Source: a virus. From it: a DNA stretch of 62,556 bases. Location: positions 1 to 62,556 of the IMG/VR virus record IMGVR_UViG_3300037189_033826; one strand, written 5' to 3'. Of the stretch, positions 7,391 through 60,342 are shown in pieces. The translations under genes and the position numbers were made by a program. The notes beneath the pieces were generated by a model, which was not told the origin of the DNA, ran no database searches, and worked only from the letters and a program-made list of their open reading frames with translations. Every line of letters starts with the position of its first letter. Positions within the stretch are counted from its first letter, which is position 1.

Positions 7391-7684
7391 ATGATTAAAT
7401 ATACTATTTATTTAAAGTACGAAAAATACTGGGCTCAAGGGAAAGAAACGAAAGAATATGCTAAAACTACTGATCTTGCTTTGCAAGAACAAGTTAAAAA
7501 AGATTTTATTAAAGAAATTGGCAAATTTACTAAAAAGGAAATCGTTATTTTAGATGAGCCAGTTCATTTAGAGCCCGCTGTTCGGATAGCAATCGATCCT
7601 CAAATACTGAGTCAAGCTGTTGATTTTATGAGGAAATCAGATTTTGTCGAAACAATCGATAAAGATTTTGTTCAATGCAATTAA
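7391..7684 (+). CDS. Hypothetical protein, 97 aa
   Basis: Small protein with many charged residues and no recognised domain. It is separated from the Nei-like gene by a 22-nt gap and overlaps the next gene by 10 nt, so it is in the same transcription unit. The beta-strand-like N-terminus (IKYTIYLKYEKYW) followed by a Lys-rich helix suggests a compact fold. No function assigned. Confidence 0.65.
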   Translation: MIKYTIYLKYEKYWAQGKETKEYAKTTDLALQEQVKKDFIKEIGKFTKKEIVILDEPVHLEPAVRIAIDPQILSQAVDFMRKSDFVETIDKDFVQCN

Positions 7685-8016
7685 CTAATTGCCCTAGATG
7701 TAGTAAAAAACTTACGTCTATTTATAAAAATACTACTTCTCTATCCTGTCAAAGTTGTCCTCCAATTAAGGCGACTTCATCTTCATTTAAATCAAGCTAT
7801 AGATTTAGCTGGATCTATTTCTTCCCTTGTCATGATGAGATGAATATTCTGTTTTCAGAATGTGATTATCACCTAAATATCCGTTTTGATACTAAAACGG
7901 TCACTATTTATTGGTGTGATGACATTAGTCAAGTAATAAATCTTCCATTAGACATTTATCTTCTGCCAGAAGAGGAAATACTAAGTTTAGTTAAAACGGC
8001 ACTTATTTTTCAGTAA
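7675..8016 (+). CDS. Zinc-ribbon-like small protein with LIFQ tail
   Basis: 113-aa relative of the nine tandem proteins at 47112-49841. The N-terminus has NCPRCSKK and CQSCPP, two CxxC knuckles typical of a zinc ribbon. The C-terminus is the shared helix-like segment DIYLLPEEEILSLVKTALIFQ with Phe in the penultimate position. It starts inside the end of the previous gene. The binding partner is unknown; zinc ribbons bind nucleic acids or proteins. Confidence 0.75.
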   Translation: MQLTNCPRCSKKLTSIYKNTTSLSCQSCPPIKATSSSFKSSYRFSWIYFFPCHDEMNILFSECDYHLNIRFDTKTVTIYWCDDISQVINLPLDIYLLPEEEILSLVKTALIFQ

Positions 8017-10282: not shown

Positions 10283-11281
10283 ATGTTACCTTTAAAAATC
10301 AAAGAGATAGATGAGCTTTATAATTCTGGATTGTCGCAAATAAAAATAGCAAAACTGTATAAAACAACAGCTAGTGCCATTTGTACATTTATGAAGACAA
10401 ATGGTATAAAAGCTAGAAATTTATATGATGCAAATTCTTTACGAATAAATATTACTGAAAATCAAGTTGATAACATATGGACATTATATAATGAAGGTTT
10501 TAATAGAGAAGAAATTGCGGTTAAAATGAATTTAACACCTTGGACTGTCAGAAAGACAATACAGGGAAAATGTAGGAAGCTTGGAGAATCTTTAAAATTA
10601 AAACGTAAGAAAAATACCATTTTATTATCTTATGAACAAGAACAGCTAATTCTTGGTTCTCTTTTGGGCGATGCGTGCCTTCATAAAAGAAAAAATAGAG
10701 ACGCCTATGATTTTACGGTAGGGCATTGTTTAGAGCAAAAAGAATATTTAATTCATAAATGCAATGTATTAAATTCAAATTTACGATCCTACATAAAAGG
10801 CGAAGAGAGTTATTCTCGTGGAAAAGAATTTTTTGTTACCTCATATAATAACAAATATGAGCTTGAAAGAATTTATAAAATGTGTTTTAAAAATGGTGTT
10901 AAAACAGTTAATGAGGAATGGATGTCTAAATTAGACATATTGGGAATAGCCTATTGGTTTATGGATGACGGATCTTCTCATAGTCATAAAAGCACTGTAA
11001 ATGTTAATTTTTCAACTTTGTCATTTCCTAAATCAGATTTAAAAATTTTACAAGAAAAATTAAAAGAATTTGGTCTTGAGAGCACCATCTGTCATCATCG
11101 AGATGGGTATAACTATACCATATCTCTACGTCAAAAATCTGTAAATAAATTTATGAATTTAATTTCTCCTATTGTAAATACAATACCTTGCATGCAGTAT
11201 AAGATAAAAAATAGAAAATTTGAGCCAGATTTTAAATTTTCTAGTAAAAAAATAAAAATGGAAAATGGCATTTATGAATAA
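10283..11281 (+). CDS. LAGLIDADG homing endonuclease with N-terminal HTH repeats
   Basis: Free-standing homing endonuclease of 332 aa. Two LAGLIDADG helices are recognisable as LILGSLLGDAC and LGIAYWFMDDGSS; their acidic ends hold the catalytic residues. The N-terminus carries two helix-turn-helix-like segments (YNSGLSQIKIAKLYKTT and YNEGFNREEIAVKMNLT) that could add DNA specificity. I chose ATG 10283 for its GGGGAG ribosome site; 10238 is an in-frame alternative. The flanking genes are uninterrupted, so it is neither an intein nor intron-borne. Its end overlaps ligA, suggesting insertion just upstream of that conserved gene. Confidence 0.85.
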   Translation: MLPLKIKEIDELYNSGLSQIKIAKLYKTTASAICTFMKTNGIKARNLYDANSLRINITENQVDNIWTLYNEGFNREEIAVKMNLTPWTVRKTIQGKCRKLGESLKLKRKKNTILLSYEQEQLILGSLLGDACLHKRKNRDAYDFTVGHCLEQKEYLIHKCNVLNSNLRSYIKGEESYSRGKEFFVTSYNNKYELERIYKMCFKNGVKTVNEEWMSKLDILGIAYWFMDDGSSHSHKSTVNVNFSTLSFPKSDLKILQEKLKEFGLESTICHHRDGYNYTISLRQKSVNKFMNLISPIVNTIPCMQYKIKNRKFEPDFKFSSKKIKMENGIYE

Positions 11282-13157
11282 AATTCAAGATTTAGAATTT
11301 AAAATAATTAAAGCTAGAAATGATTATTATAATAATCAGAGTAATATTAGCGATCTTTTGTATGATACTTGGATTGAAGAATTATCAAAATTAGATCCTA
11401 AAAATATCGCCATTATAGGAATAGGTAGTGAGCCCATTTCTCAATGGGAAAAGTATACACACTTAGTTCCAATGGGATCATTAAATAAATGTCATACTCA
11501 TGATGAGTTTATTCATTGGAAAAAAAAATATGCAAATGATGATGAAATTCTTGTCACTCTTAAATTAGATGGTTTGTCAGTTTCATTGATTTATGAAAAT
11601 GGAATTTTTATTAAAGGAGTTAGTCGAGGAAGCGGTAAAACTGGAGAATTATTAACATCTAATGTTGCTAAGATGATAGGCGTCCCTTTAAGATTAAATA
11701 AAAAAATTAATGCCTCGATTCGAGGAGAAATTCTTTTATCTAAAGAAAATTTCATTAAATATTTCAGCGAATATAGCAATGAAAGGAACGCTTGTTCTGG
11801 CATATCAAGAAGATATGATGGCGCAGGCTCAGACAAATTAAATGTAATGGCGTATGAAATTATTACAGATTACGAAGATTGTAAAACGTATGACTCTCAA
11901 TTTAAATTATTAAAAAAATTAGAATTTGATGTTCCAGATTTTATTGTGGTTAAAAATGAAAAAGATGTTTTAAATTTTAAAAATAACTATCAGTCTAAAC
12001 TAAGAGATGATTTTAAGTTTTGTTTAGACGGGTTAGTTATTCATAATAATGATTTATTCAAACATCAAAAATTTGGATCATCTAATGATAGACCATATTG
12101 TTCTATTGCTTATAAATTTGATTCCATTGCCAAAGAAACATCTATACGTGATATTAAAATCCAAGTTGGAAATTCTGGGAGAATAACTCCCGTCGCAATA
12201 TTTGAGCCTAAAATTAATTTAATGGGAGCAGATGTAGAAAAAGCTTCACTACATAATTTTTCTAATATAGTTGATATGGGTATTGGAATTGGAGCGACAG
12301 TTTTAGTTTGCAGGAGTGGCGACGTCATTCCATTTGTTGAAGAAGTAACGAATAAACCTAAAGAAATTTTTCAACCACCAATTAATTGCCCAGAATGTAA
12401 TGTTAAATTAATTTCTGTAGGAGAATACATCCAATGTCCCAACACTAAATATTGTTTTGCCCAAATTTCTGGAAGAATCAAAAATTGGGTTAAAGAGCTT
12501 AATATTCTAGAGCTTGGAGAATCATTAATTGAAAAACTAATTAATTCTGGTTTAGTTTCAGATGTTTCAGACCTTTATACTTTAACAGTTGAAGGCTTGG
12601 CGTCATTAGATCGAATGGGAGAGAAATCTGCCAAAAATGTTTACGATTCGATTTGGAAAAACAATCCGGTCCCCCTTGAATTAGTCATTGGAGGACTTAG
12701 TATTCCTTTGATCGGCTCCAGCACGATCAAACTGCTAATCGAAGCCGGTTATGATAACTTAGATAAGTTACTAGCTTGCTCCTTAAAAGAGATGGAAAAT
12801 GTCAAAGGAATTGGTCCGGCTAGAGCCGAATCATTATTCAATGGTCTTATTCAATATGAAGATGTTTTAAATGATTTAATTTCAAATGGTTTAAAAATTA
12901 AAGAAAAGATTGTTGGAGTTTTATCCAATTCTGGCGTTGCTTTTACTGGTTCAATGAAGATGAAGCGGGCATTATTGGAACAAATGGTTATTGATGCCGG
13001 AGGCAATGTTAAGAGTTCTGTTGGAAAGTCAACAACTTATCTTGTTATTGATGATGTTAATTCAACATCGAGCAAGGCAGTTAATGCTAAAAAGTTTGGA
13101 ACAAAGCTCATTTCAGAGGATGATTTCTTAAAATTAATTGGTAAACAATGTCATTAA
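11274..13157 (+). CDS. ligA: NAD+-dependent DNA ligase LigA
   Basis: Complete 627-aa ligase that seals nicks in DNA using NAD+. Domains in order: the Ia NMN-binding region with SDLLYD, the nucleotidyltransferase domain with the adenylated Lys in KLDGLS (K97), an OB fold, a Cys4 zinc finger (CPECNVKL and CPNTKYC), helix-hairpin-helix repeats (near VKGIGPARAESLF), and a C-terminal BRCT domain (GVAFTGSMKMKR to KLISEDDFLKL). ATG 11274 lies inside the end of the endonuclease gene; 11265 is an in-frame alternative. It overlaps the next gene by 10 nt. It would serve replication, recombination and repair of phage DNA. Confidence 0.95.
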   Translation: MNKIQDLEFKIIKARNDYYNNQSNISDLLYDTWIEELSKLDPKNIAIIGIGSEPISQWEKYTHLVPMGSLNKCHTHDEFIHWKKKYANDDEILVTLKLDGLSVSLIYENGIFIKGVSRGSGKTGELLTSNVAKMIGVPLRLNKKINASIRGEILLSKENFIKYFSEYSNERNACSGISRRYDGAGSDKLNVMAYEIITDYEDCKTYDSQFKLLKKLEFDVPDFIVVKNEKDVLNFKNNYQSKLRDDFKFCLDGLVIHNNDLFKHQKFGSSNDRPYCSIAYKFDSIAKETSIRDIKIQVGNSGRITPVAIFEPKINLMGADVEKASLHNFSNIVDMGIGIGATVLVCRSGDVIPFVEEVTNKPKEIFQPPINCPECNVKLISVGEYIQCPNTKYCFAQISGRIKNWVKELNILELGESLIEKLINSGLVSDVSDLYTLTVEGLASLDRMGEKSAKNVYDSIWKNNPVPLELVIGGLSIPLIGSSTIKLLIEAGYDNLDKLLACSLKEMENVKGIGPARAESLFNGLIQYEDVLNDLISNGLKIKEKIVGVLSNSGVAFTGSMKMKRALLEQMVIDAGGNVKSSVGKSTTYLVIDDVNSTSSKAVNAKKFGTKLISEDDFLKLIGKQCH

Positions 13158-37456: not shown

Positions 37457-37532
37457 GGGCAATTGGTTTTAACGGCTAAAACGCTTTACTCTAAATAAAG
37501 AGACGACTGTTCGATTCAGTCATTGCCCACCA
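37457..37532 (+). tRNA. Suppressor tRNA, anticodon CUA (reads UAG)
   Basis: Complete cloverleaf with encoded CCA. Acceptor GGGCAAT pairs with ATTGCCC; D-arm GTTT/AAAC with GG in its loop; anticodon stem CTTTA/TAAAG closing the loop CTCTAAA; T-arm GACTG-TTCGATT-CAGTC; discriminator A, then CCA (37530-37532). T33 is present and the anticodon 37491-37493 is CTA, complementary to the amber codon. All stems are perfectly paired, so it looks functional. The amino acid it carries cannot be fixed from the sequence. It lies between rIIB and a MORN-like gene. Confidence 0.9.
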
Positions 37533-39631: not shown

Positions 39632-40762
39632 ATGAATAGTGCGGTATTAGGTCAAATTTTTGGTGATGAGGCTAAAGGGGCAATAACTCATGCTTTATCT
39701 CCCAAATATAATTGGGTCATTCGTTCTCAAGGCGGAAATAATGCTGGTCATACCATTTATCGTGATGGCAAAAAATATCTGCATAACCTTCTTCCTTCTG
39801 TAGATTATCGTCACCCAACCATTAAGTCCTATCTTGGAGCCGGAATGGTTTTGGATGTAGAGTGTCTTCTCTCGGAGGTCAAGGAGGCTGAGAAATCGTT
39901 CCCAGGGGTCGCCAAATCGATTTTCGTTGACAAGGATGCTCACATCGTCTTGACGTCTCACAAAGAAGAGGATAAGCTTCTGAACGCCCACATTGGGACG
40001 ACAGGGCGAGGGATCGGCGGCGCCTACAAAGCTAAAGTTGGCAGGACCGGAGTAAGAGTTCGAGATTTGTTAAAAGATAATAATCAATGCCTTCAAGAGT
40101 TAAAGAATCTTGGGGTTAATTTTGTTTGTTCTCTGGAATTATTTCCAGAATTTGAAAAATCAAGATTATTATTTGAAGGAGCGCAAGGAGTTTTATTAGA
40201 TATTAATCATGGGATTTATCCTTATGTTACTTCTAGTGATTGCACTGTTTCTGGGATTGCAGCGGCAGGATTCTCTAAATTTATGCCATCTGAAGTCTTC
40301 GGGATTGGAAAAGTTTATTTGACCAAGGTTGGAGAGGGTCCGATGCCAACTGAGGTTTTTGGAGAAGAAGCTGAAAAGCTTAGGTCTCTTGGTCATGAAT
40401 ATGGTTCAAATACTGGAAGACCAAGAAGAATTGGGTATTTAGATTTGCCAGCGATGAGGTATGCGATTGCGAAGTCTGGAATCAACAAATTGGTTTTATC
40501 TAAGTTTGATATTTTAGATGGATTGGGCGAGATTAAGGTTTGCGTTCGGTATGAGGCTGGTGAGCCAATGTCTTCAAGTGACTTCTTTGATGCTGTTCCG
40601 GTTTATAAGAGCCTTCCTGGTTGGAAGGATTCTCATGATTTATCGCAAATAAAACATTTTGTTGATTTTATTTCAAATGAGACTGGATTAAAGGTTTCTT
40701 ATATTTCTTGCGGGATTAAAGAAGGAGACATTATGAATCCTTATACTGGCGAGAAAATCTGA
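39632..40762 (+). CDS. Adenylosuccinate synthetase family enzyme (PurA/PurZ-like)
   Basis: 376-aa GTPase-like synthetase with GQIFGDEAKGA (P-loop-like start), GGNNAGHTIY, GTTGRGIGGAY, FEGAQGVLLDINHGIYPYVT, VGEGPMPTE, TGRPRRIGYLD and KFDILDGLGEIKV. PurA joins Asp to IMP; phage PurZ joins Asp to dGMP on the way to 2-aminoadenine (base Z). The length, shorter than bacterial PurA (about 430 aa), is in the PurZ and archaeal range. The Asp of GDE is kept, while the following GKGK is AKGA. PurA or PurZ cannot be decided here; a MazG-like gene lies at 294, but no DatZ is visible in the window. Confidence 0.85.
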   Translation: MNSAVLGQIFGDEAKGAITHALSPKYNWVIRSQGGNNAGHTIYRDGKKYLHNLLPSVDYRHPTIKSYLGAGMVLDVECLLSEVKEAEKSFPGVAKSIFVDKDAHIVLTSHKEEDKLLNAHIGTTGRGIGGAYKAKVGRTGVRVRDLLKDNNQCLQELKNLGVNFVCSLELFPEFEKSRLLFEGAQGVLLDINHGIYPYVTSSDCTVSGIAAAGFSKFMPSEVFGIGKVYLTKVGEGPMPTEVFGEEAEKLRSLGHEYGSNTGRPRRIGYLDLPAMRYAIAKSGINKLVLSKFDILDGLGEIKVCVRYEAGEPMSSSDFFDAVPVYKSLPGWKDSHDLSQIKHFVDFISNETGLKVSYISCGIKEGDIMNPYTGEKI

Positions 40763-46020: not shown

Positions 46021-47115
46021 GTGAGCAACTCATTAAATTTACAGGAAATTGGACAAGAACAAGCCGCTAATATCTCTAAACTTTTTATTAATAGTGGAGA
46101 AAACCTTCTTCTATTAGGTCGAAGAGGGACCGGCAAAACGCAATTATTGATGCAATCTGTTAAAGATTGTGGATATAAAATAATTTATATTAATTTATCG
46201 GTTATTGAGCGTTGTGATCTTCTTGGCTATCCAGATATGTTTAATAGCTCGGAAACGGTTGATTTTAAATCCCCAAACTTCTTACCAAAAGCAAATGGTA
46301 AAAAGCCCGATACAGTCCTTTTTTTTGATGAAATTGACAAGTGTTCTTCAGATATTACAGCTCCACTATTAGAAATTCTACAATTTAAAAAAATTAACGG
46401 GAGCCCATTAAATGCTGCTGCCTGTATTTTGACCGGCAATTTGATTGAAGAAGGGGCATATTCCAATCAAATCAGCTCTGCGATTCTGGATCGGTGCGCA
46501 AAGTATGTTCTTAAATTTGATTTAGATTATTGGATTGAGTGGGCAAAAGTTAATGATGTCCACGATTTGATTGTTAGTTTCTTGATTGCGAACCCAGAAT
46601 TAGCTTGCGGCGAGCCAGAGACGACTTATTATGCTACACCAAGCCCTCGGGGTTGGACGCTTGCTAGCCAGGCGTTATGGCGCGCTAAAGAGCTAAAGAT
46701 GACAGACATACAAACCGTCAGCAGTCTCATTGCCGGATATGTTGGATACGAAGCGAGTCTTCGCTTTGAAACTTGGTATAGATTTTATCGCAAATTTGAG
46801 CCAATCATTCATTCTTTATTTGAATTCAATGAATCAAATTTTGATTATGATAGTTTGATGCCAACAGAAAAATTAGTTTTCTGCATTACAGCTTGTCATT
46901 TAGCCAAACTAAAGATACAGGAATCAGCCAAAAACAAGTCTAAGTATTTAGAAACATTGTGCTTTTTCTTTGATAAACATCAGGTTGATATTGAGACTCA
47001 ATTAATTTCATTAAGGAATTCATTTCCGGTAGAGTTTGTGACCAAACATAAATTATATTCAAATAAAGTATTTTTAAAGAAATTTGAAAAAATACAAGAT
47101 GTCATTAAGAAATGA
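46021..47115 (+). CDS. MoxR-like AAA+ ATPase (copy 2)
   Basis: 364-aa paralog of the 27865 protein: Walker A GRRGTGKT, YINLSVIERCDLLGYPDMF, Walker B LFFDEIDKCS and the TGNLIEEGA sensor. It starts with GTG at 46021 since the nearby ATG is followed at once by a stop. No VWA partner lies next to it. Instead it overlaps the first of nine zinc-ribbon-like genes by ATGA. It may share the VWA partner at 29093 or act on a different target set. Confidence 0.87.
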   Translation: MSNSLNLQEIGQEQAANISKLFINSGENLLLLGRRGTGKTQLLMQSVKDCGYKIIYINLSVIERCDLLGYPDMFNSSETVDFKSPNFLPKANGKKPDTVLFFDEIDKCSSDITAPLLEILQFKKINGSPLNAAACILTGNLIEEGAYSNQISSAILDRCAKYVLKFDLDYWIEWAKVNDVHDLIVSFLIANPELACGEPETTYYATPSPRGWTLASQALWRAKELKMTDIQTVSSLIAGYVGYEASLRFETWYRFYRKFEPIIHSLFEFNESNFDYDSLMPTEKLVFCITACHLAKLKIQESAKNKSKYLETLCFFFDKHQVDIETQLISLRNSFPVEFVTKHKLYSNKVFLKKFEKIQDVIKK

Positions 47116-47438
47116 AATGTCTAATCCATACAGAACAAGAATTAAGTCCCGCCTTTAACGAATTTTCTTTTTATTGCTCGCGATGTAATGGAGACGAATA
47201 TTATAATTTTTTTTATAATGCTTATTCAGAAGATAAGTGTTCTAAGGAAGCTAGAATTGTAATGGATATTAATGACTATAGGCTTTGTTATAAAATAAAC
47301 GATTCATCAGAATCTTATCTTTATAAGCGCAGAAATAAAGAAAGTAAAATTTTATTAGATTTGCCCGCTAATTTACATATTACTCATACTTACGATCAAA
47401 TTGTCAAACTCATTGAAGAATATTTAATATTTTCATGA
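47112..47438 (+). CDS. Zinc-ribbon-like protein, array member 1 (LIFS end)
   Basis: 108 aa. The first knuckle is degenerate (MKCLIHTEQE), the second YCSRCNGD is intact. The acidic middle has MDINDYRLCYKI, and the end is THTYDQIVKLIEEYLIFS. It is coupled to the MoxR gene and to member 2 by ATGA overlaps. Members share only the Cys pattern, a central DxxRL/I strand and the tail, so they are anciently diverged or fast evolving. Confidence 0.77.
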   Translation: MKCLIHTEQELSPAFNEFSFYCSRCNGDEYYNFFYNAYSEDKCSKEARIVMDINDYRLCYKINDSSESYLYKRRNKESKILLDLPANLHITHTYDQIVKLIEEYLIFS

Positions 47439-47758
47439 AGTGCCTTATTTGTCAAAATTCTGAATTAGAATCAGCGCCTGGATGGACACGCAGTTATTTT
47501 TGCGGCTTTTGCGGAAAAGATGATAGGAATGATTATAATTTTTATTTCAGTAATGATTATGGGTTTATGGCTATTAATATAGATAATTATAGGTTAATTT
47601 ACTATTATAAAAACCCATCTTATTCTTATTTTATAATTCGAAAAGAAGATTGCAGTTTTGACAGAATTAATATTAATTATTTTCCTGCGAATATGCATTT
47701 AACTCATTCATTAGATCAAATTAAAAATATAATAGATCAACATTTGGTGTTTTCATGA
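47435..47758 (+). CDS. Zinc-ribbon-like protein, array member 2 (LVFS end)
   Basis: 107 aa with MKCLICQNSE and YFCGFCGKDD knuckles, the central strand INIDNYRLIYYY, and the end THSLDQIKNIIDQHLVFS. Closest to member 1 in the central strand and tail. Coupled by ATGA to both neighbours. Confidence 0.78.
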   Translation: MKCLICQNSELESAPGWTRSYFCGFCGKDDRNDYNFYFSNDYGFMAINIDNYRLIYYYKNPSYSYFIIRKEDCSFDRININYFPANMHLTHSLDQIKNIIDQHLVFS

Positions 47759-48048
47759 TTAAATGTTTCTTTTGTAAAAATATAATTAAAAGTCCTGATT
47801 TAAATTTTACTTGGGCTACATGTTTTCATGGTCCAAAAGAATTTTATCATAAATCATCAGATAATCGTACTCTTTTATGGTTTTCAGACGATCTTGCTTT
47901 AGCTATTAATCATGCTAAAAATGGAAATGATTATATTCGTTGTAATAATAAAAAAATTTACATAGGGAATTTCCCAAATAACTTTCTTGATATTTATTCT
48001 GAAAAAGATGCCATTAATCTTATTAACCAATATTTGGTGTTTTCATGA
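47755..48048 (+). CDS. Zinc-ribbon-like protein, array member 3 (LVFS end)
   Basis: 97 aa with MIKCFFCKNI as the first knuckle; the second Cys pair is reduced to a single TCFHGPKEF. It ends YSEKDAINLINQYLVFS. Loss of the second knuckle suggests zinc binding is not essential in every member, while the tail is kept. Confidence 0.75.
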   Translation: MIKCFFCKNIIKSPDLNFTWATCFHGPKEFYHKSSDNRTLLWFSDDLALAINHAKNGNDYIRCNNKKIYIGNFPNNFLDIYSEKDAINLINQYLVFS

Positions 48049-48347
48049 TTATTAAATGTCCCGGATGTCAATCTACTCTTGAACCAAAAAGTAAAATTTA
48101 TACATGTGATTCTTGTCCCAAAGTTAAGTTTAAAAAACATGCCGATTTGCCCTATTTTAGGTTTGAGGAAGATTATGGATGGTCTCTAACTCTAAACGAC
48201 ATTAGAATATGTCATTACATAGAACAATCATATTATTGGCTTTCATCAGAAGTCTCTCATATTGAGATGGATTTTCCATTTGATCTTTATCAAAAGACAG
48301 AGAGCGACATTTTACTTTTTATTAAAACGGCAACTATATTTAAATGA
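48045..48347 (+). CDS. Zinc-ribbon-like protein, array member 4 (TIFK end)
   Basis: 100 aa with IIKCPGCQST and YTCDSCPKVK knuckles, a central LNDIRICHYI strand and the end TESDILLFIKTATIFK. Its second knuckle (CxxCP) matches the 7675 protein and member 9. Its stop AAATGA provides the next start. Confidence 0.78.
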   Translation: MIIKCPGCQSTLEPKSKIYTCDSCPKVKFKKHADLPYFRFEEDYGWSLTLNDIRICHYIEQSYYWLSSEVSHIEMDFPFDLYQKTESDILLFIKTATIFK

Positions 48348-48640
48348 AAATTAAATGTTTGTTTTGTTCTAATTATTTGGACAATGAGAGCGGATATTAT
48401 TGCTCAAATGAAAAGAGAGACTCCCCAAATTATCATGCCGGATACATGCATTATTCCAATGATGGTAATTGGTATATTGTATTTAAAGAATATGTTTTAC
48501 AAAAATCCCCTTCTAGAAGCGGAATTATTTGTAGATTAACTAGCAAATATATTTATATTGATATAGACCCTCAAGCCTATTTGTTTTCTAAAGAAAAAAT
48601 AATGAGTGATATTATTTTTCCAAATATAATATTTTCATGA
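48344..48640 (+). CDS. Zinc-ribbon-like protein, array member 5 (IIFS end)
   Basis: 98 aa with KIKCLFCSNY followed by a single-Cys YYCSNEKRD region, and the end LFSKEKIMSDIIFPNIIFS. The tail is longer and slightly altered, but Phe is still penultimate. ATGA overlaps on both sides. Confidence 0.75.
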   Translation: MKIKCLFCSNYLDNESGYYCSNEKRDSPNYHAGYMHYSNDGNWYIVFKEYVLQKSPSRSGIICRLTSKYIYIDIDPQAYLFSKEKIMSDIIFPNIIFS

Positions 48641-48918
48641 AATGTCCATTGTGTGAAAATGAGATGTCGATTTCACAACGACACTTCAATCAGTGTAAAG
48701 AATGTAAAAATTTTTATTATTATAATGATAATGACTGGGTGATCCATATTGGATCCATTAAAATAGATTGCAACTCATTTTATCGCTCATATCCAGGCGT
48801 TTTCATTTTTGATGGAAGCCTCACCTTAATAGAAGACTCAAATCTTCCTAGAGATTTATTTAAATATTCAAAAGAAGAGATATTGCGTAAAGTAAATGAA
48901 ACTTTAATCTTTTTATAA
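48637..48918 (+). CDS. Zinc-ribbon-like protein, array member 6 (LIFL end)
   Basis: 93 aa with MKCPLCENEM and QCKECKNFYY knuckles, IHIGSIKIDCNSF, and the end YSKEEILRKVNETLIFL. Very similar in layout to member 7, indicating a recent duplication. It ends with TAA and leaves a 7-nt gap before member 7, the only break in the chain of overlaps. Confidence 0.78.
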   Translation: MKCPLCENEMSISQRHFNQCKECKNFYYYNDNDWVIHIGSIKIDCNSFYRSYPGVFIFDGSLTLIEDSNLPRDLFKYSKEEILRKVNETLIFL

Positions 48919-48925
48919 GGCTATT

Positions 48926-49207
48926 ATGAGATGTCCATTGTGTGAAATTAATATTCCGTTTAGAAGAAACGATCATAATTTTTGTGATTGTGAAAATTTT
49001 TATTTTTGTAATGACACAGATTGGTGGGTTCGAATCGAATCTATTACAATAGATTGTCAGCCATACCATTCGTATGGAGATGAGGGGGTTGTTATTAAAA
49101 ATAAAAATAATATTATAATGAAAAATACGGGAATTCCTATTGATTTTTACAAACGATCAAAAGAAGAAATATCTCTTAAAATTCAAGAGATTTTAATTTT
49201 TTTATGA
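48926..49207 (+). CDS. Zinc-ribbon-like protein, array member 7 (LIFL end)
   Basis: 93 aa, closest to member 6: MRCPLCEINI, then FCDCENFYFC, IRIESITIDCQ-like strand (written here as RIESITIDCQPY), and the end RSKEEISLKIQEILIFL. ATGA overlap with member 8. Confidence 0.78.
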   Translation: MRCPLCEINIPFRRNDHNFCDCENFYFCNDTDWWVRIESITIDCQPYHSYGDEGVVIKNKNNIIMKNTGIPIDFYKRSKEEISLKIQEILIFL

Positions 49208-49509
49208 AGTGCCCAGCTTGTAATAAGAAGATGAAGGCTTCTGGTGGGGAGCTTGGGGATTCAGGCGTTTATATTTGCCAAAATAAACTTTGCAGAAAAT
49301 TCACATTTATATCCCATGATAATTGGCATCTTAAATTCGAAACTTTTACATTGGACCGTTTATATACTGAAACGGTAAACTTGTTCATTTATAAAAATGA
49401 TATTCAATCCTTATCTGAGATAATAGAGACATCTCTTCCTAAAGATATTTATTTGTTTTCAAAAGAAGAGATTTTGTCCAAAGTGAAAGAATTTTTGGTT
49501 TTCTCATGA
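49204..49509 (+). CDS. Zinc-ribbon-like protein, array member 8 (LVFS end)
   Basis: 101 aa with MKCPACNKKM and YICQNKLCRK (wider CxxxxC spacing), LKFETFTLDR, and the end FSKEEILSKVKEFLVFS. Coupled on both sides by ATGA. Confidence 0.78.
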   Translation: MKCPACNKKMKASGGELGDSGVYICQNKLCRKFTFISHDNWHLKFETFTLDRLYTETVNLFIYKNDIQSLSEIIETSLPKDIYLFSKEEILSKVKEFLVFS

Positions 49510-49841
49510 ATTGTCCTTATTGTCAGTCTATTATGGTAAATCATAAGCATATTGGTTCTGGTTGGCTAGCGTGTAATCAATGCCCTAAAGTCAATGTTTT
49601 CAGCTCTCTTGACAAGAGCAATAAATTTTATTATTTAAATCCAACAAGGTGGACGTTGGCAACATCCAAGTATTATATTTCATACAATGAAAGTTCTTCA
49701 GAAAATGAATGCTACACCGTTAATATTGAAGACCTAAACAATCACTATTTTGTAGGATTTCTAAAATTAGAAGAGGATCTTTACCTAAAAGAAGACTTAG
49801 AAATTAACGCTATCATTGAGACTCATCTAATTTTTAATTAA
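49506..49841 (+). CDS. Zinc-ribbon-like protein, array member 9 (LIFN end)
   Basis: 111 aa with MNCPYCQSIM and LACNQCPKVN knuckles and the end DLEINAIIETHLIFN. It is the last of the array, ends in TAA, and is separated from the RNA ligase gene by 70 nt with no obvious terminator. Confidence 0.78.
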   Translation: MNCPYCQSIMVNHKHIGSGWLACNQCPKVNVFSSLDKSNKFYYLNPTRWTLATSKYYISYNESSSENECYTVNIEDLNNHYFVGFLKLEEDLYLKEDLEINAIIETHLIFN

Positions 49842-49911: not shown

Positions 49912-50781
49912 ATGACAGATTATTATCCATGTGTAGTTAAACTAGGAAAAGTAGAGCCTCTTCCAAATTCTGATTTCCTTCAGATTTCAACCGTTATGAA
50001 TGAGTATCCGGTTATTTTTAGAACCGGAGATTATAAATCAGGCGATTTAGTTGCTTTTTTACCATACGATACCATCGTTCCAAGCAATGAAACTTTTGCT
50101 TTCTTAACTCCTCCTCCTAAGAAAAATAAAGACGGCTCCATTAAACAAGAAAGCCCTCCAGTCGATCAAATTCCGATTAAATATCGAACTATTAAAAGCA
50201 AGCAAGTTAGAGGGACCTATTCAGAAGGTCTGCTAATGCCTTGTCCTCCTGGCTATAAAGAAGGCGATTCAGTTGTTGAGTATTATGGTTTAACTAAACG
50301 AGTCTATGAAGAAGAAGTTGAAGATCATCCAAATAATTTTAAAACCAAATCTGGATCAAATGATAATGAAAAGAACCCAAAAACTTTTCAATTAAAAAAA
50401 TATGATTTGGAAGGTATGGCTAAATATGGTTATACATTTGAAGAAGGAGAAAATGTATTAATCCAGGAGAAATTTGAAGGATGTGTTGATGGCTCCACCA
50501 TATTAGATTCCATTGAAAATGGAAAAATTTCTATAAAAGAAATCGTTGAAAATCGTCTTGGAATTCATGTTAAATCATATAATTCAGATTCTAATAATGT
50601 AGAATTTAACAAAATTTTAGAATTTTCAGAATTGCCTAATAACAATGATTGGTATGAGATAGAAACGGAGGATGGGAAAACGTTAAAATTAACGGGCAAT
50701 CATATGGTTTATTTACCAAAACTAGGCTGCTATCGTAGAGCCGACGAATTATCGTCAAATGATGATGTTTTGATTGACTAA
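49912..50781 (+). CDS. Rnl5-type RNA ligase N-half fused to N-intein
   Basis: 289 aa. Residues 1-190 are the N-terminal part of an RNA ligase like Deinococcus DRB0094 (Rnl5): an OB-like module (VVKLGKVEPLPNSDFLQI, GDYKSGDLVAFLPYD) and the start of the nucleotidyltransferase domain ending in the catalytic motif EKFEG (Lys187). Residues 191-289 are an N-intein starting CVDGSTI (Cys1) with the TGNHMVY block B and ending VLID before TAA. The rest of the ligase is at 51856-52497, so protein trans-splicing is needed for a working enzyme. The start is ATG 49912 with AAGGAAAAT. Confidence 0.9.
   Translation: MTDYYPCVVKLGKVEPLPNSDFLQISTVMNEYPVIFRTGDYKSGDLVAFLPYDTIVPSNETFAFLTPPPKKNKDGSIKQESPPVDQIPIKYRTIKSKQVRGTYSEGLLMPCPPGYKEGDSVVEYYGLTKRVYEEEVEDHPNNFKTKSGSNDNEKNPKTFQLKKYDLEGMAKYGYTFEEGENVLIQEKFEGCVDGSTILDSIENGKISIKEIVENRLGIHVKSYNSDSNNVEFNKILEFSELPNNNDWYEIETEDGKTLKLTGNHMVYLPKLGCYRRADELSSNDDVLID
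50482..50778 (+). other. Split intein, N-terminal half (IntN, 99 aa)
   Basis: It begins at Cys1 immediately after the ligase KFEG motif. Block A is CVDGSTILDS and block B is LKLTGNHMVYLP with the T-x-x-H that assists the N-S acyl shift. It ends at a natural stop codon, so this is a split rather than a contiguous intein. The nucleophile after splicing is Cys of the C-extein. Confidence 0.9.
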
Positions 50782-50805
50782 CTGAAAAATTAGATTCAAT
50801 CTTTT

Positions 50806-50831
50806 CTATATTGATATATAATTCAATATGG
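50806..50831 (+). promoter_or_regulatory. Hairpin burying the start codon of the EDxHD endonuclease
   Basis: CTATATTGA (50806-50814), loop TATATAAT, TCAATATGG (50823-50831): nine pairs including one G-T. The ATG at 50828-50830 is within the 3' arm. If formed, it would restrict initiation of the endonuclease on long read-through transcripts, as described for several T4 homing endonuclease mRNAs. Confidence 0.6.
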
Positions 50832-51754
50832 AAAAATGGACTTGCAGATATTGCCACGTTGAAAATAATTATAAAAATAAGTACACCGTATCTTCACACA
50901 TATCTAGATGTCAAGATTGGAAAAAATGGAAGAGAGAAAATCTCTCTGAAGAATTTTTAATTAAAAGATATGTTAATGAAGAGGCTTCGTTGCCAGAAAT
51001 TGCAGAAGAGTTAGGATTAGTTTCTGTTACGGCAGTGTATAATCAGCTCAAAAAATTTAAAATAAAAATTAGAACGGTTAAAGAGGCTTGCCCTAATTCT
51101 AAGAAAAAGGCAGAAAAGACTAATTTAATTAGATATGGCGCTAGACATAATTTATCGCCAGGACATCCGGTCCGAGTTGCTTATGACGCCAAAATATTGG
51201 CAGAATATGGCGCAATAAATACCTTTCAATTAGAATCTATTAAGAATAAAATTAAAGAAAGTTTATTAGAAAAATATGGGTACGAATATACATGTCAAAT
51301 TCCTTATGTTAAAGAAAAAGTCAAGAAAACAATGATGGAAAGATATGGGACTAATTGTCCATTAGATTTAGTTAGAAGTAAGAATACATATACAAAAATA
51401 CACCAAAAAGTTTTTAATTGGTTAAAAGAAGGTGGTTATAATGTAGATGTTGAATTAAATGTAAAAGATGAAAATGGCAAATATTATTATTTTGATGTTT
51501 ATTTTAATGATAATAAAAAATTAATTGAAGTAAATGGTGATTTCTATCATGGAAATCCAAGGTTTTATTCCAAAAATGATACCATAAAAATATATGGCGT
51601 AGTTAAAACCGCAGAAGAATTATGGAACAAAGATTTTGAAAAAACTAAATTTGCTGAAAAATTAGGATATTCAGTTCTTTCTGTTTGGGAATATGATATA
51701 GATAATGATTTTGATTCTGTTAAAAAACAAATTTTAGAATTTCTTAAAAAATGA
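50828..51754 (+). CDS. EDxHD (Vsr-like) homing endonuclease between intein halves
   Basis: 308 aa. The N-terminus has a Cys/His pair arrangement (CRYCHVENNYKNKYTVSSH) resembling a zinc finger and a helix-turn-helix-like LPEIAEELGLVSVTAVY. The middle has three loosely repeated LLEKYGYEYT/MERYGTNCP-type modules. The C-terminal nuclease fold has KKLIEVNGDFYHGNPRFY and SVLSVWEYDID, the E-D-x-H-D-type motif of Vsr-like homing endonucleases known from fractured split-intein genes. It has its own start and overlaps IntC by ATGA. It would mobilise the intein insertion. Confidence 0.87.
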   Translation: MEKWTCRYCHVENNYKNKYTVSSHISRCQDWKKWKRENLSEEFLIKRYVNEEASLPEIAEELGLVSVTAVYNQLKKFKIKIRTVKEACPNSKKKAEKTNLIRYGARHNLSPGHPVRVAYDAKILAEYGAINTFQLESIKNKIKESLLEKYGYEYTCQIPYVKEKVKKTMMERYGTNCPLDLVRSKNTYTKIHQKVFNWLKEGGYNVDVELNVKDENGKYYYFDVYFNDNKKLIEVNGDFYHGNPRFYSKNDTIKIYGVVKTAEELWNKDFEKTKFAEKLGYSVLSVWEYDIDNDFDSVKKQILEFLKK

Positions 51755-51855
51755 AAATTAAATCCATAAAGAAAATAGAGTCTTCTAGTAAGAGATATGA
51801 TATTACCGTTGCTAACACCAGCAATTATTATGCAAACGACATATTAATTCATAAT
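51751..51855 (+). other. Split intein, C-terminal half (IntC, 35 aa)
   Basis: KIKSIKKIESSSKRYDITV then ANTSNYYANDILIHN: the F block and terminal His-Asn needed for Asn cyclisation, directly followed by Cys+1 of the ligase. It starts with its own ATG that overlaps the endonuclease stop. Length and layout are standard for short IntC fragments such as those of gp41-type split inteins. Confidence 0.9.
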
Positions 51856-52497
51856 TGCAATGCTTCTGCCACATATGCTGAGAATAAATTGTGGGTAAAA
51901 AGCCGCAATTATTTCAAACGCAATGGGACTGCAAATGTAAAATTTAAAGCTCCTCTGAGAAGACCAGTTGCCTATACTAAATACTTATTCAATAAACTAG
52001 TTTCTAGTATAAACAATATAATGATTGTTTTAGGTTTAGTTCCAAAACCAGCGTCAGTTGCAAAAAGTATGTGGTGGGAGATACCAATCAGATATAATTT
52101 AGAAGAAAAATTAAAGAAATATCCATACTTAACCATTTATTATGAAATGGTTGGACAGGTTAGAAATTTTAAATATCATTGCAAATCTAAGGATGGTTAT
52201 ATTGAAATGGATGGTATTATTTTTGATATTTGGGATATTAAAAATAAAAAATTTTTAGAATGGCATGAAGTTGTTGCTATTGCTAATGATTTGGGAATGA
52301 AAACCGCATCTGTCTTGTATGAAGGTCCGTGGAAAACAGACAGAAGCCTTCATGCTCTTGCTGAAGGAAAATCTACCTTAGGAGATCATGTAAAAGAAGG
52401 CTGGGTCATGCGCTCTGTTCCAGAATCTTATCATCCTAAATTAGGCAGAAAGATTGTAAAATTAAAGGGTAGAGATTATAAACTTGCTAAAGGATAA
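51751..52497 (+). CDS. C-intein fused to Rnl5-type RNA ligase C-half
   Basis: 248 aa. After the 35-residue IntC, the ligase resumes at CNASATYAENKLWVKSR, continuing motif I (KFEG-CNAS). IYYEMVGQVRNF resembles motif III, DGIIFDIWDI motif IIIa, EGWVMRSVPE motif IV and IVKLKGRDYKLAKG motif V with the catalytic Lys pair. Spliced, the ligase would be about 403 residues. It joins RNA ends, probably nicks in duplexes, as Deinococcus Rnl does. It is followed by a kinase-phosphatase gene, forming an RNA repair operon. Confidence 0.9.
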   Translation: MKIKSIKKIESSSKRYDITVANTSNYYANDILIHNCNASATYAENKLWVKSRNYFKRNGTANVKFKAPLRRPVAYTKYLFNKLVSSINNIMIVLGLVPKPASVAKSMWWEIPIRYNLEEKLKKYPYLTIYYEMVGQVRNFKYHCKSKDGYIEMDGIIFDIWDIKNKKFLEWHEVVAIANDLGMKTASVLYEGPWKTDRSLHALAEGKSTLGDHVKEGWVMRSVPESYHPKLGRKIVKLKGRDYKLAKG

Positions 52498-52498
52498 G

Positions 52499-53434
52499 AT
52501 GTCTACCGTCGTATTAATTATGGGTTATCCTTCTTCGGGTAAATCCAGACTCGCCAAGACCTTTATTGATAAAGGATATCAAAACCTCAATCGGGACACT
52601 ATTGGCGGAAGCATCATTGATTTGCTTCCAAAATTAGAATCATATCTTATAGACAATAAAGATGTTGTGTTAGATAACTTATTTCCTAATGTTGAGATAA
52701 GAAAGCCATTTATTGATTTAGGAAAGAAATATAAGGCAAACATTGAAGCTCATGTTATGGGAACTTCAATGGAAGACTCTCAATTTAATTTTCTAGAAAG
52801 AATGTTAAAGCTGGAAGGAAGAATGCTTTCTTTTGAGGAAATTAAAAAGTCCAAGAATCCGAGCATCTTTCCTCCGGCTGTTTTTTATAAGTACAGAAAA
52901 GATTATGTTAAACCTTCAAAAGAAGAAGGTTTTGATTTGATTGTAAATCATTCATTTACTAGAAAATTGCATGATGGATTCAATACTAAATTGTTAATAT
53001 GTGATTTTGATTCGACATTAAGAGAATGTATTGATGGGAATGGAAAATATCCGGTTGAACCGTCACAGGTTAAGATTATGCCAAATCGGGCTCGAATATT
53101 AAAAGAATATTTAGATCGCGGCTATAAACTCTGCGGAGTCTCAAATCAAAGCGGGATTCACAAAGGTGAGCTGACTCATCAGAAAGCGGTTGAATGCTTT
53201 GAAGAGACTAATAGGCTTTTGGGAGTTGAAATTGATTACAGGTTTTGCCCACATCAAAGCGCTCCGCTATCTTGTTATTGCAGAAAGCCAAATTCTTTAT
53301 TTGGGATAGAGTTTATTCATAAATATAAAGCAAGCGCTAAAGATAGCTATTTTGTAGGCGATTTTCATTCTGACAAAACATTCGCTCAAAGATTAAACAT
53401 TAGCTATGTAGACGCATCATTGTTTTTTAAATAA
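52499..53434 (+). CDS. Polynucleotide kinase/phosphatase, copy 1
   Basis: 311 aa, starting at ATG 52499 with AAGGATA just upstream. The N-terminal P-loop kinase GYPSSGKS phosphorylates 5'-OH ends, and the C-terminal HAD phosphatase with DFDSTLREC (D-x-D), VSNQSG and VGDFHSDK removes 3'-phosphates. This is the domain order of T4 Pnkp. It heals RNA ends for the neighbouring ligase. The last codons (SYVDASLFFK) are echoed by a short frame after the downstream HNH gene, suggesting the 3' end was duplicated when that gene inserted. Confidence 0.87.
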   Translation: MSTVVLIMGYPSSGKSRLAKTFIDKGYQNLNRDTIGGSIIDLLPKLESYLIDNKDVVLDNLFPNVEIRKPFIDLGKKYKANIEAHVMGTSMEDSQFNFLERMLKLEGRMLSFEEIKKSKNPSIFPPAVFYKYRKDYVKPSKEEGFDLIVNHSFTRKLHDGFNTKLLICDFDSTLRECIDGNGKYPVEPSQVKIMPNRARILKEYLDRGYKLCGVSNQSGIHKGELTHQKAVECFEETNRLLGVEIDYRFCPHQSAPLSCYCRKPNSLFGIEFIHKYKASAKDSYFVGDFHSDKTFAQRLNISYVDASLFFK

Positions 53435-54251: not shown

Positions 54252-54297
54252 ATGTATTGATTTTCAATATGTAGATGAAAAAGAATTCTTTAAATGA
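54244..54297 (+). pseudogene. Displaced C-terminal fragment of the pnk gene (17 codons)
   Basis: A short frame, MIECIDFQYVDEKEFFK, starts in the end of the HNH gene and overlaps the next gene by ATGA. Its YVD-xxx-FFK-stop ending matches the end of the kinase-phosphatase upstream (YVDASLFFK), also at DNA level (TATGTAGA...TTTAAAT). It is best read as the original 3' end of pnk, cut off when the endonuclease gene inserted with a replacement tail. It could still act as a leader for coupled translation. Confidence 0.55.
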
Positions 54298-54617
54298 GCA
54301 GTATTTATTCATTGTTTAGAGAAAATGAGTCTTATTTTTATTTCGATTCTCAAGACATGATAATTGATAGGCAATATATTGTTATCCCCTTAAAATGGAA
54401 ACATCATATGGCTTCATACGATTGTGTGTCAATTTTATTATCAGACATTGATTTATTATCATCGTTAAATGAATCAACGTCAATTTCAGATGTGTTATCG
54501 TTTATAACAGATAATTATCCAAATTTTTCAACAAAAGATGCAATTGAAATCACAAAACATTTTAAAAATTATAAACGGGCTTATGCTCTTGCTAAAGAAA
54601 TCTTAATTTTTTCTTAA
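54294..54617 (+). CDS. Hypothetical protein with LIFS tail, 107 aa
   Basis: Begins MSSIYSLFRENESYFYFDSQ, has a strand-rich first half and a helical second half, and ends KRAYALAKEILIFS with penultimate Phe. No Cys knuckles, so it belongs to a different family from the zinc ribbons yet shares the tail. ATGA overlap with the pnk fragment. Confidence 0.7.
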   Translation: MSSIYSLFRENESYFYFDSQDMIIDRQYIVIPLKWKHHMASYDCVSILLSDIDLLSSLNESTSISDVLSFITDNYPNFSTKDAIEITKHFKNYKRAYALAKEILIFS

Positions 54618-55018: not shown

Positions 55019-56017
55019 ATGTCAGTCATTCACTGGACCGAAATTACAAGCCTTCATAATATTCGAAAGTTTACTCAATCTCACCCAGAGATTCTGAATG
55101 GGAATTCGAGAGTAAGTTATAAATATAAAGTTAAAATTCATGGGGCATGCTGTGCCGTTCAAATTCATCAAGATAAAATTATTCCTCAGAGTCGAACAAC
55201 TGAATTAACGCAAAGCCAAGATAATTATGGTTTTGCTCGCTGGGTCTTTTCTCAGAAGAATCTTTGGGAACAAATTCATCTTGACACAGATGAAGAAATG
55301 GTTATTTTTGGAGAATGGGCGGGCAAAGGTGTACAACAAGGCGTAGCTGCTTCAGAAATTTCTGATAAATTCTTTGCTGTTTTTGCTGCTCGATATTTAG
55401 ATTCAGATAATGACACTCTAATTATAGACCCATTTGTTCTTCAAGATTTGGTCAAAAACATTCCTAATACTTATGTTCTTCCATGGCAGGGAGCCCAAAT
55501 AGAAATTGATTGGAACGCCTCTTCTGAAGAGCTTGCCAAGCAAGCCGAAGAAATCAATAAAATTGTTTATCAGATTGAAAAGAACGACCCATGGATTGAA
55601 AATACCTTTGGTATAAAAGGTGTTGGCGAAGGAATCGTCCTATATCCAGTTAGCCAGAACCATCTTGGTAATAAAAATTACAGCAATCTTTGCTTTAAGG
55701 CTAAAGGCGATAAACATAAAAACATTAAGAATAACGCACCTGCACAGGTAGACGCATCTACCGCTAATAGCATTGAACAATTTGTGGATATGGTTTTGAC
55801 CGAAGCAAGATTAGAACAGGGAATTACTACTCTTGCTGGCAGTTTATCCTTTGATATGAAATACATTAGTCCATTTTTAACTTGGATTTCAAATGATGTT
55901 CAAAAAGAAACCAAAGATGAATTGGAGGCTTCTAATTTAGAGTGGAAGCAGGTCTCAAAGTCTATTAATGATAAAGCTAGAAAATGGTTTTTATCTAAGC
56001 ATCAAGAAAAAGCTTGA
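55019..56017 (+). CDS. Rnl2-like RNA ligase
   Basis: 332-aa nucleotidyltransferase with motif I KYKVKIHGACCAV (the K-x-H-G form seen in T4 Rnl2), motif III IFGEWAGKG, motif IIIa-like DKFFAVFAARY, motif IV GEGIVLYP and motif V CFKAKGDKH. Rnl2 enzymes seal 3'-OH/5'-phosphate nicks in RNA duplexes. It starts 2 nt after the DUF4259-like gene and is the second ligase of this island. Confidence 0.88.
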   Translation: MSVIHWTEITSLHNIRKFTQSHPEILNGNSRVSYKYKVKIHGACCAVQIHQDKIIPQSRTTELTQSQDNYGFARWVFSQKNLWEQIHLDTDEEMVIFGEWAGKGVQQGVAASEISDKFFAVFAARYLDSDNDTLIIDPFVLQDLVKNIPNTYVLPWQGAQIEIDWNASSEELAKQAEEINKIVYQIEKNDPWIENTFGIKGVGEGIVLYPVSQNHLGNKNYSNLCFKAKGDKHKNIKNNAPAQVDASTANSIEQFVDMVLTEARLEQGITTLAGSLSFDMKYISPFLTWISNDVQKETKDELEASNLEWKQVSKSINDKARKWFLSKHQEKA

Positions 56018-59106: not shown

Positions 59107-60342
59107 ATGTCGTTAGAAGTTCAACAATTTTTAGAAAAGAAGTCATTCAAAGACCTTCAGATAGAGCACGGCGTTTATCAATCTTTTTCTAAAGATGGAA
59201 CAAAATTCTCTCTCAACTATGATATGCTCGAATCAAAGGACTCAGATTTTCTCGCTCAGCAATGTCGAGGACTAATCCTATCCCACAAAGACGGTCTCTC
59301 TTATCTTGATCAAGCCGTTACCATCAATGGTCGAATAAACTACGATCATGTTATTCCAGGCGAAACAGTCGTTATTGCCAGACCTATGGATCGTTTCTTT
59401 AATGCCGGGCAAGGCGCCGAAGCCAATATTGATTGGTCTAAGCCCGGAATAAAGATTATGGAAAAATTGGATGGTTCTTGTCTTATCCTTTATTACTCAA
59501 TCTTTTCAAAGTCTTGGCATGCTGCGACCAGAAGTATGCCTGATGCCGATTTAATCATGGATAACGGTCTTTTTACTTTTAGGACCTTATTTGAAAAAGC
59601 CCTTTCCGATTCTCTTAACTTAACTTTTGATCAATTTACTTCGCACCTTAATCCATGGCTAACATATTGCTTTGAATTAACAACGCCATTAAATCAAATT
59701 GTTTGTCATTATCCAAATTACTCTATTACGCTCTTAGCAGCTAGAAATACTTGCTCTGGAAGAGAATTCGACATTCATAATGTCGATGTTTATCCCGAGA
59801 CTCCTAGAGTCAAATCTTATAACTTTTCTTCTCTCCAAGAGACGGTTGATTGGGTTTCCAATCAAAATCCGTTGGAGCACGAAGGCGTTGTTATCATGGA
59901 TGCGCACTTCAATAGAATTAAAGTCAAAAATGCCCTCTACGTCGCTTATAGTAAGACGAAGGACCGCCTCGGGGCGAGCCTTAGAAATTGCTTAGAACTC
60001 ATCCTGGCGGAAAAGCAAGACGATATCATAGGGCATCTGCCACCAATCTTGGCTGACAATCTCAAAATTATGGAAGCTGCTGTTAGAGACGCTTTTAATT
60101 TCTATAATGCCAAATATCTTGAAATTCAACATGAGCTAAAGAAAAGCAATTTATGTACAGCAAAAGATTTTGCTTTAGCCCTTAAACGTCATAAGATTAA
60201 ATGGGAATCTCCATTATTCCAAATGAATGCTGGAAAGGCAGCACACATGCGAGATTTCGTTAATAATAGCCGAAAAGACGGAACCTGGAATAATAGCTTC
60301 TTAGATAAAGTTCTTGAAATTATTGAAGATTTCAAGAAATAA
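59107..60342 (+). CDS. rnlA: T4 Rnl1-like RNA ligase
   Basis: 411-aa ATP-dependent RNA ligase of the T4 RnlA type. Motif I is MEKLDGSCLI (K-x-D-G), with CRGLIL upstream, FELTTPLNQIV (motif III), LEHEGVVIM (motif IV) and NRIKVKNALYV (motif V) with its Lys pair, then an Rnl1-like helical C-terminal domain. Rnl1 repairs anticodon-cleaved tRNA. Length fits T4 Rnl1 (374 aa) with a slight extension. Codon usage in 59100-60100 is less AT-biased than the small genes, similar to other conserved enzymes here. Confidence 0.9.
   Translation: MSLEVQQFLEKKSFKDLQIEHGVYQSFSKDGTKFSLNYDMLESKDSDFLAQQCRGLILSHKDGLSYLDQAVTINGRINYDHVIPGETVVIARPMDRFFNAGQGAEANIDWSKPGIKIMEKLDGSCLILYYSIFSKSWHAATRSMPDADLIMDNGLFTFRTLFEKALSDSLNLTFDQFTSHLNPWLTYCFELTTPLNQIVCHYPNYSITLLAARNTCSGREFDIHNVDVYPETPRVKSYNFSSLQETVDWVSNQNPLEHEGVVIMDAHFNRIKVKNALYVAYSKTKDRLGASLRNCLELILAEKQDDIIGHLPPILADNLKIMEAAVRDAFNFYNAKYLEIQHELKKSNLCTAKDFALALKRHKIKWESPLFQMNAGKAAHMRDFVNNSRKDGTWNNSFLDKVLEIIEDFKK

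What the first reader, a model, noticed from the sequence alone, without database searches (positions are those of the whole stretch)
49912..52497. RNA ligase gene fractured by a split intein with an EDxHD endonuclease between the halves
The Rnl5-type ligase is broken immediately after its catalytic KFEG motif by an IntN that ends in a stop codon. A separate Vsr-like/EDxHD endonuclease gene follows, then an IntC with its own ATG and the rest of the ligase starting at Cys. This matches the fractured-gene arrangement described for other split inteins, but I do not know of one inserted in an RNA ligase. Insertion at the nucleophile motif means neither half can have ligase activity alone.
Basis: partly seen in the sequence, partly recalled or inferred. 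Interest (0 to 1): 0.88.

Follow-up and report, generated by a model that had tools for sequence, protein, structure and literature searches.

The report
Phage RNA ligase split by intein
A virus's RNA-repair enzyme is encoded as two half-genes, each fused to half of a self-splicing protein (a split intein) with a DNA-cutting gene between them, so the two halves should be stitched together after translation; similar elements have broken dozens of other viral RNA and DNA ligases at the same active-site spot.

Summary
A 403-aa Rnl5-like RNA ligase is broken directly after its nucleophile motif (EKFEG|CNAS) by a canonical class-1 split intein. IntN (50482-50778) ends in TAA. A separate EDxHD/Vsr-type homing endonuclease gene follows (50828-51754), then IntC with its own ATG (51751-51855), which overlaps the endonuclease stop. 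A 52%-identical relative (L003) has the uninterrupted ligase (EKLEG|QN). The arrangement is the known 'fractured gene' type, as in AceL NrdHF. Comparison adds that the window is one of many. I found 33 further distinct split-intein loci at ligase motif I, most with a related endonuclease between the halves. The Pfam-checked hosts span two RNA-ligase families, ATP DNA ligases and an NAD DNA ligase. Other viruses carry contiguous inteins at the same site (LAGLIDADG forms and a HEN-less mini-intein), and some loci have decayed or lost the endonuclease. Ligase-site inteins group together in a tree (79/94) regardless of host family. I read the window as a new member of a known kind in a host site I could not find described; Dassa et al. 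2009 could not be read here. Splicing, DNA cleavage and homing were not tested.

The parts
49912..50481 (+). N-extein: OB-fold module and motif I (EKFEG) of the Rnl5-like RNA ligase, 190 aa; the nucleophile Lys is the fourth codon from the end
   Evidence: PF21189 OB (8e-9) and phrog_968; AAGGA ribosome-binding site upstream of 49912 and start aligned with L003
50482..50781 (+). IntN, 99 aa (Cys1, block B TGNH), TAA stop at 50779-50781; translated fused to the N-extein
   Evidence: Intein_splicing over cut-off, TIGR01445 over cut-off, NrdJ-1 match
50782..50827 (.). 46-nt AT-rich intergenic gap; no promoter above background found
50828..51754 (+). Free-standing EDxHD/Vsr-type homing endonuclease, 308 aa: N-terminal HTH and KYG-repeat DNA-binding region, C-terminal nuclease (D223, E234, H241, D269 invariant)
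   Evidence: AlphaFold2 pLDDT 86.9; Foldseek 3r3p and 1cw0 prob 1.00
51751..51855 (+). IntC, 35 aa with its own ATG (ATGA overlap with the HEN stop), ending ANDILIHN
   Evidence: TIGR01443 over cut-off; PF14890 positions 121-155
51856..52497 (+). C-extein, 213 aa, starting Cys+1-Asn; carries the remaining nucleotidyltransferase motifs (FDIWDI, EGWVMR, IVKLKG)
   Evidence: PF09414 6.4e-16 on this half alone
52499..53434 (+). Neighbour: polynucleotide kinase/3'-phosphatase-like gene, with the ligase a plausible RNA-repair pair
   Evidence: PNK3P over cut-off, AAA_33 just below cut-off

Best explanation
A mobile split intein with an associated free-standing EDxHD-type homing endonuclease has inserted into a phage Rnl5-like RNA ligase exactly after motif I. 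The halves N-ligase-IntN and IntC-C-ligase are translated separately from one cluster, associate, and trans-splice by the class-1 route (Cys1 acyl shift, transfer to Cys+1, Asn cyclisation with the penultimate His) to give the 403-aa ligase. The endonuclease cuts intein-free ligase alleles at motif I, and repair copies the whole IntN-HEN-IntC block into them. The choice of site means that imprecise loss inactivates the enzyme, which protects the element. Shown here: anatomy, intact splice residues, empty site, homologous insertions in other ligases, HEN fold. Inferred: splicing, cleavage target, homing.
For: Complete intein motifs and halves; seamless junction against the uninterrupted L003; HEN fold of I-Bth0305I/Vsr; related HENs between IntN and IntC of other fractured genes; 33 other distinct split-intein loci at ligase motif I; decay series expected of a homing element: truncated HEN (L299), broken HEN (L301), split without HEN (L287, L295, L302), contiguous mini-intein (L100); HEN and IntC lower in GC (27.7%, 26.7%) than the exteins (33-34%), IntN 31%.
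Against: No activity was tested. The contig is a metagenomic assembly with no second copy examined. The EDxHD leading Glu is not conserved in this HEN set. The HEN lacks a clear ribosome-binding site.
Confidence: 0.87

Rival explanations
1. The intein is dead and the ligase is a pseudogene: the halves are made but do not splice, and the intact PF09414, Rnl1-like and NAD ligases of the same virus cover the function.
For: Three other ligase genes with intact KxDG-type motifs lie in the window, so loss could be tolerated.
Against: All splice residues, both extein reading frames and the HEN are intact; the C-half keeps FDIWDI, EGWVMR and IVKLKG; phage genomes delete useless DNA quickly.
Confidence: 0.07
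2. The HEN is an independent free-standing endonuclease that inserted into a pre-existing contiguous intein; the element is a broken intein plus a hitchhiker rather than one unit.
For: A contiguous mini-intein at the same site (L100) is a close relative of the window's intein, and its sequence runs through the split point (..EMT|MKIVSIK). HENs of this family also occur without a detectable flanking intein pair.
Against: About 28 of the best 80 HEN relatives sit exactly between IntN and IntC, so the association is stable. The direction of L100 (ancestor or fused descendant) is not resolved. This concerns origin more than present function.
Confidence: 0.3
3. Assembly artefact: unrelated reads joined inside a ligase gene.
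For: Single metagenomic record.
Against: The same architecture occurs in many unrelated contigs from different samples, and identical copies occur in several assemblies (L126/L127, L144/L145/L146).
Confidence: 0.01

Closest known systems
Fractured genes with split inteins (Dassa et al. 2009, doi 10.1093/nar/gkp095, known to me from citations and memory; AceL NrdHF, PMC7891396)
   Same: Conserved phage enzyme broken by a split intein with a free-standing homing endonuclease gene between the halves; Vsr-related HEN (memory of Dassa 2009)
   Different: Host gene is an RNA ligase and the site is motif I; AceL NrdHF is class 3 with a GIY-YIG HEN, this one is class 1 with an EDxHD-type HEN
NrdJ-1 split intein (PDB 8ubs)
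   Same: Closest solved relative (E 4e-13); Cys1, matching split position, HN terminus
   Different: About 40% identical; inserted in ribonucleotide reductase
I-Bth0305I (EDxHD homing endonuclease, PDB 3r3p)
   Same: Catalytic-domain fold (Foldseek prob 1.00, TM 0.69 on the target)
   Different: 25% identity, E 4e-3; not intein-associated as far as I know; different DNA-binding region
NgrRnl / DraRnl (Rnl5 RNA ligases, PDB 5cot, 6vte; TIGR02306)
   Same: N-terminal OB module plus nucleotidyltransferase domain; best PDB fold match of the uninterrupted relative
   Different: About 18% identity; TIGR02306 score 63 is below its 151 cut-off; those genes are uninterrupted
Tenacibaculum phage PTm1 split DNA polymerase
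   Same: Annotated 'intein-containing split DNA polymerase precursor' with a homologous 'VSR endonuclease' between the halves
   Different: DNA polymerase host, distant intein (24% identity)
RtcB inteins (NF038162)
   Same: An intein in an RNA-ligase enzyme
   Different: RtcB is an unrelated ligase fold, so the site is not homologous (established knowledge)

Membership tests
Class-1 split intein | Cys1, block B TxxH, terminal HN, Cys/Ser/Thr +1 | tested here: met
   C1, TGNH, LIHN, C+1
Class-1 split intein | Two separately translated halves that both match intein profiles | tested here: met
   Stop after IntN, own ATG for IntC; TIGR01445 and TIGR01443 over cut-off
Class-1 split intein | Trans-splicing activity | not testable with these tools
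   needs expression
Fractured gene (Dassa type) | Conserved enzyme split by IntN/IntC with a free-standing endonuclease gene between | tested here: met
EDxHD homing endonuclease | Vsr-like catalytic fold | tested here: met
   3r3p and 1cw0 prob 1.00, E 4e-3 and 1e-2
EDxHD homing endonuclease | Conserved E-D-x-H-D residues | tested here: inconclusive
   D223, H241, D269 (and E234) invariant in 22 sequences; an upstream Glu is present in only some
EDxHD homing endonuclease | Cleaves the intein-free allele | not testable with these tools
   needs assay
Rnl5 RNA ligase | OB module N-terminal to a PF09414 nucleotidyltransferase domain; NgrRnl-like fold | tested here: met
   PF21189 and PF09414; NgrRnl top PDB hits for L003
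Rnl5 RNA ligase | Curated TIGR02306 (DRB0094) cut-off | tested here: not met
   63 bits against 151: Rnl5-like, not a DraRnl equivalog

The most novel reading that the evidence does not exclude
Motif I (the KxDG nucleophile) of covalent nucleotidyltransferase ligases is a general homing site: one related set of inteins, split, contiguous LAGLIDADG or mini, has moved among RNA-ligase, ATP DNA-ligase and NAD DNA-ligase genes of phages by recognising the same structural site, so inteins crossed between enzymes that share almost no other sequence.
Probability: 0.55. Interest if true: 0.72.

Novelty: new member of a known kind. Interest (0 to 1): 0.62.

Why it matters
It adds phage RNA ligases, at the catalytic lysine motif, to the targets of split inteins, and the survey suggests that ligases are among the most often fractured phage genes. 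It supplies a natural series (contiguous with LAGLIDADG, mini, split with EDxHD-type HEN, split without HEN) at one homologous site, which makes the origin of split inteins testable. It also gives many natural split inteins with Cys, Ser or Thr at +1 for protein-ligation work.

Tried and rejected
Read-through of the IntN stop: rejected (stop is TAA; the tRNA found reads UAG). Lone oddity: rejected, 33 other distinct loci. HEN identification by sequence against the PDB: nothing significant; the fold search resolved it. Ligase phmmer against the PDB: no hit. A promoter in the 46-nt gap: none above background. Literature: no paper on inteins in Rnl-type RNA ligases found; Dassa 2009, Taylor 2011 and Carvajal-Vallejos 2012 are not held, so I cannot exclude that DNA ligase was among Dassa's eight host genes. 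L098/L099 (frame-shifted, HEN-deleted intein) was not counted as split because a frameshift explains it.

Full report
OBSERVATION. The window is a 62,556-base virus record of IMG/VR. The N-extein ends in EKFEG at 50481. IntN begins with Cys1 and stops at a TAA (50779-50781). After 46 AT-rich bases comes the 308-aa endonuclease gene in another frame. The IntC ATG overlaps the endonuclease stop as ATGA, and the C-extein begins with Cys at 51856. The joined exteins give 403 aa.

INTEIN. Both halves match curated intein profiles over cut-off. Joined, they match the natural split intein NrdJ-1 best among solved structures (E 4e-13). Cys1, the TGNH of block B, the terminal HN and a Cys at +1 are all present, so the class-1 splicing pathway is complete on paper.

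LIGASE. The joined exteins match PF09414 and the PHA02142 OB domain, phrog_968 and, below cut-off, TIGR02306. An uninterrupted relative, 52% identical, lies in another virus (L003) and reads EKLEG-QN across the junction. The AlphaFold2 model of L003 (pLDDT 86.7) matches Naegleria NgrRnl, the Rnl5 prototype, best in the PDB (E 1e-19). The nucleophile Lys is in the N half; FDIWDI, EGWVMR and IVKLKG are in the C half. That neither half can ligate alone is an inference from this layout. In 71 uninterrupted relatives the residue after KxxG is Cys, Ser or Thr in 40, so the site often already carries a usable +1 residue.

ENDONUCLEASE. Sequence search against the PDB was empty. The AlphaFold2 model (pLDDT 86.9, pTM 0.47) matches the catalytic domain of I-Bth0305I (3r3p) and Vsr (1cw0) with Foldseek probability 1.00, at E-values of 4e-3 and 1e-2. 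Across 22 relatives D223, E234, H241 and D269 are invariant; the leading Glu of EDxHD is not.

NOT ALONE: SAME SITE, OTHER VIRUSES. A scan with the ligase family gave two ligases with contiguous LAGLIDADG-type inteins at the same position (L061, L090). Further scans gave more (L101, L102; L104 one residue later) and a HEN-less contiguous mini-intein (L100). In a first set of 16 inteins L100 is the closest to the window's (41%, E 1e-31); in the wider set other ligase-site split inteins are as close or closer. L100 runs through the window's split point (..EMT|MKIVSIK).

Scans with the endonuclease family and with IntC plus C-extein, examined with IntN and IntC profiles, gave 33 distinct further split-intein loci at ligase motif I: 12, 6, 15. 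Two of them (L284, L292) are shifted by two residues. Pfam on the joined exteins of 13 of the loci placed hosts in PF09414, PF09511 (T4 Rnl1 type), PF01068 (ATP DNA ligase) and PF01653 (NAD DNA ligase); one further locus (L129) had no Pfam match. The other loci were assigned from the KxxG motif alone. Two of the 33 are in bacterial MAG contigs (L282, L284), which may be phage.

DECAY SERIES. L299 has a truncated endonuclease, L301 one broken by a stop, and L287, L295 and L302 are split with no endonuclease between the halves. This is what a homing cycle would leave, but homing itself was not observed.

TREE. In a 40-row intein tree the 25 ligase-site inteins are one side of a branch (79/94; 78% of 200 bootstrap trees; none of 500 label shuffles as clustered) against DNA polymerase, NrdA, NrdJ, DnaE and UvsW inteins. 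Support is below the starred level, so a single origin is favoured and not shown. Whether L100 is an ancestor or a fused descendant is unresolved.

KNOWN KIND. Related endonucleases lie between the halves of split DNA polymerases in Tenacibaculum phage PTm1 (so annotated), Campylobacter phage CP21 and Vibrio phage VPALA, and of a topoisomerase in LR756500. AceL NrdHF is a published fractured gene (PMC7891396). I know Dassa et al. 2009 only from citations and memory, because it is not held. I therefore file this as a new member of a known kind, with a host gene and site that I found in no held paper.

LIMITS. Nothing here shows splicing, DNA cleavage or homing. The counts come from scans that keep at most 80 loci each and from regular-expression and profile calls, so they are lower bounds and a few assignments by motif alone may be wrong.

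Noticed in passing
47112-49841: Nine tandem small paralogous ORFs (93-111 aa), most starting with a Cys-rich, zinc-ribbon-like stretch and mostly overlapping by 4 nt; further members by profile at 54294-54614 and 7663-8013. Function unknown.
   Followed up: partly
37457-37532: tRNA with CUA anticodon (called tRNA-Pyl by ARAGORN), probably an amber suppressor; 5 of 49 listed ORFs end in TAG.
   Followed up: no
39632-40762: Adenylosuccinate-synthetase-like gene matching the PHROG '2-aminooxy adenylosuccinate synthetase' (1e-86): possible PurZ-type base modification.
   Followed up: no
11265-13157, 55019-56017, 59107-60342: Three further intein-free ligases in the same virus: NAD DNA ligase (KLDGLS), a second PF09414 ligase (KIHGAC) and a T4 Rnl1-like one (KLDGSC).
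   Followed up: partly
L009 (Klebsiella phage KP13-7 nrdA): nrdA looks broken at two places by two different split inteins, each with its own intervening endonuclease-like ORF; LR756500 topoisomerase (L121) looks twice fractured too.
   Followed up: partly
L289, L290, L291: A second, different intein site in phage RNA ligases, upstream of motif I (FPSFIPKTDEER|CQNL), with a related endonuclease between the halves in L289.
   Followed up: no
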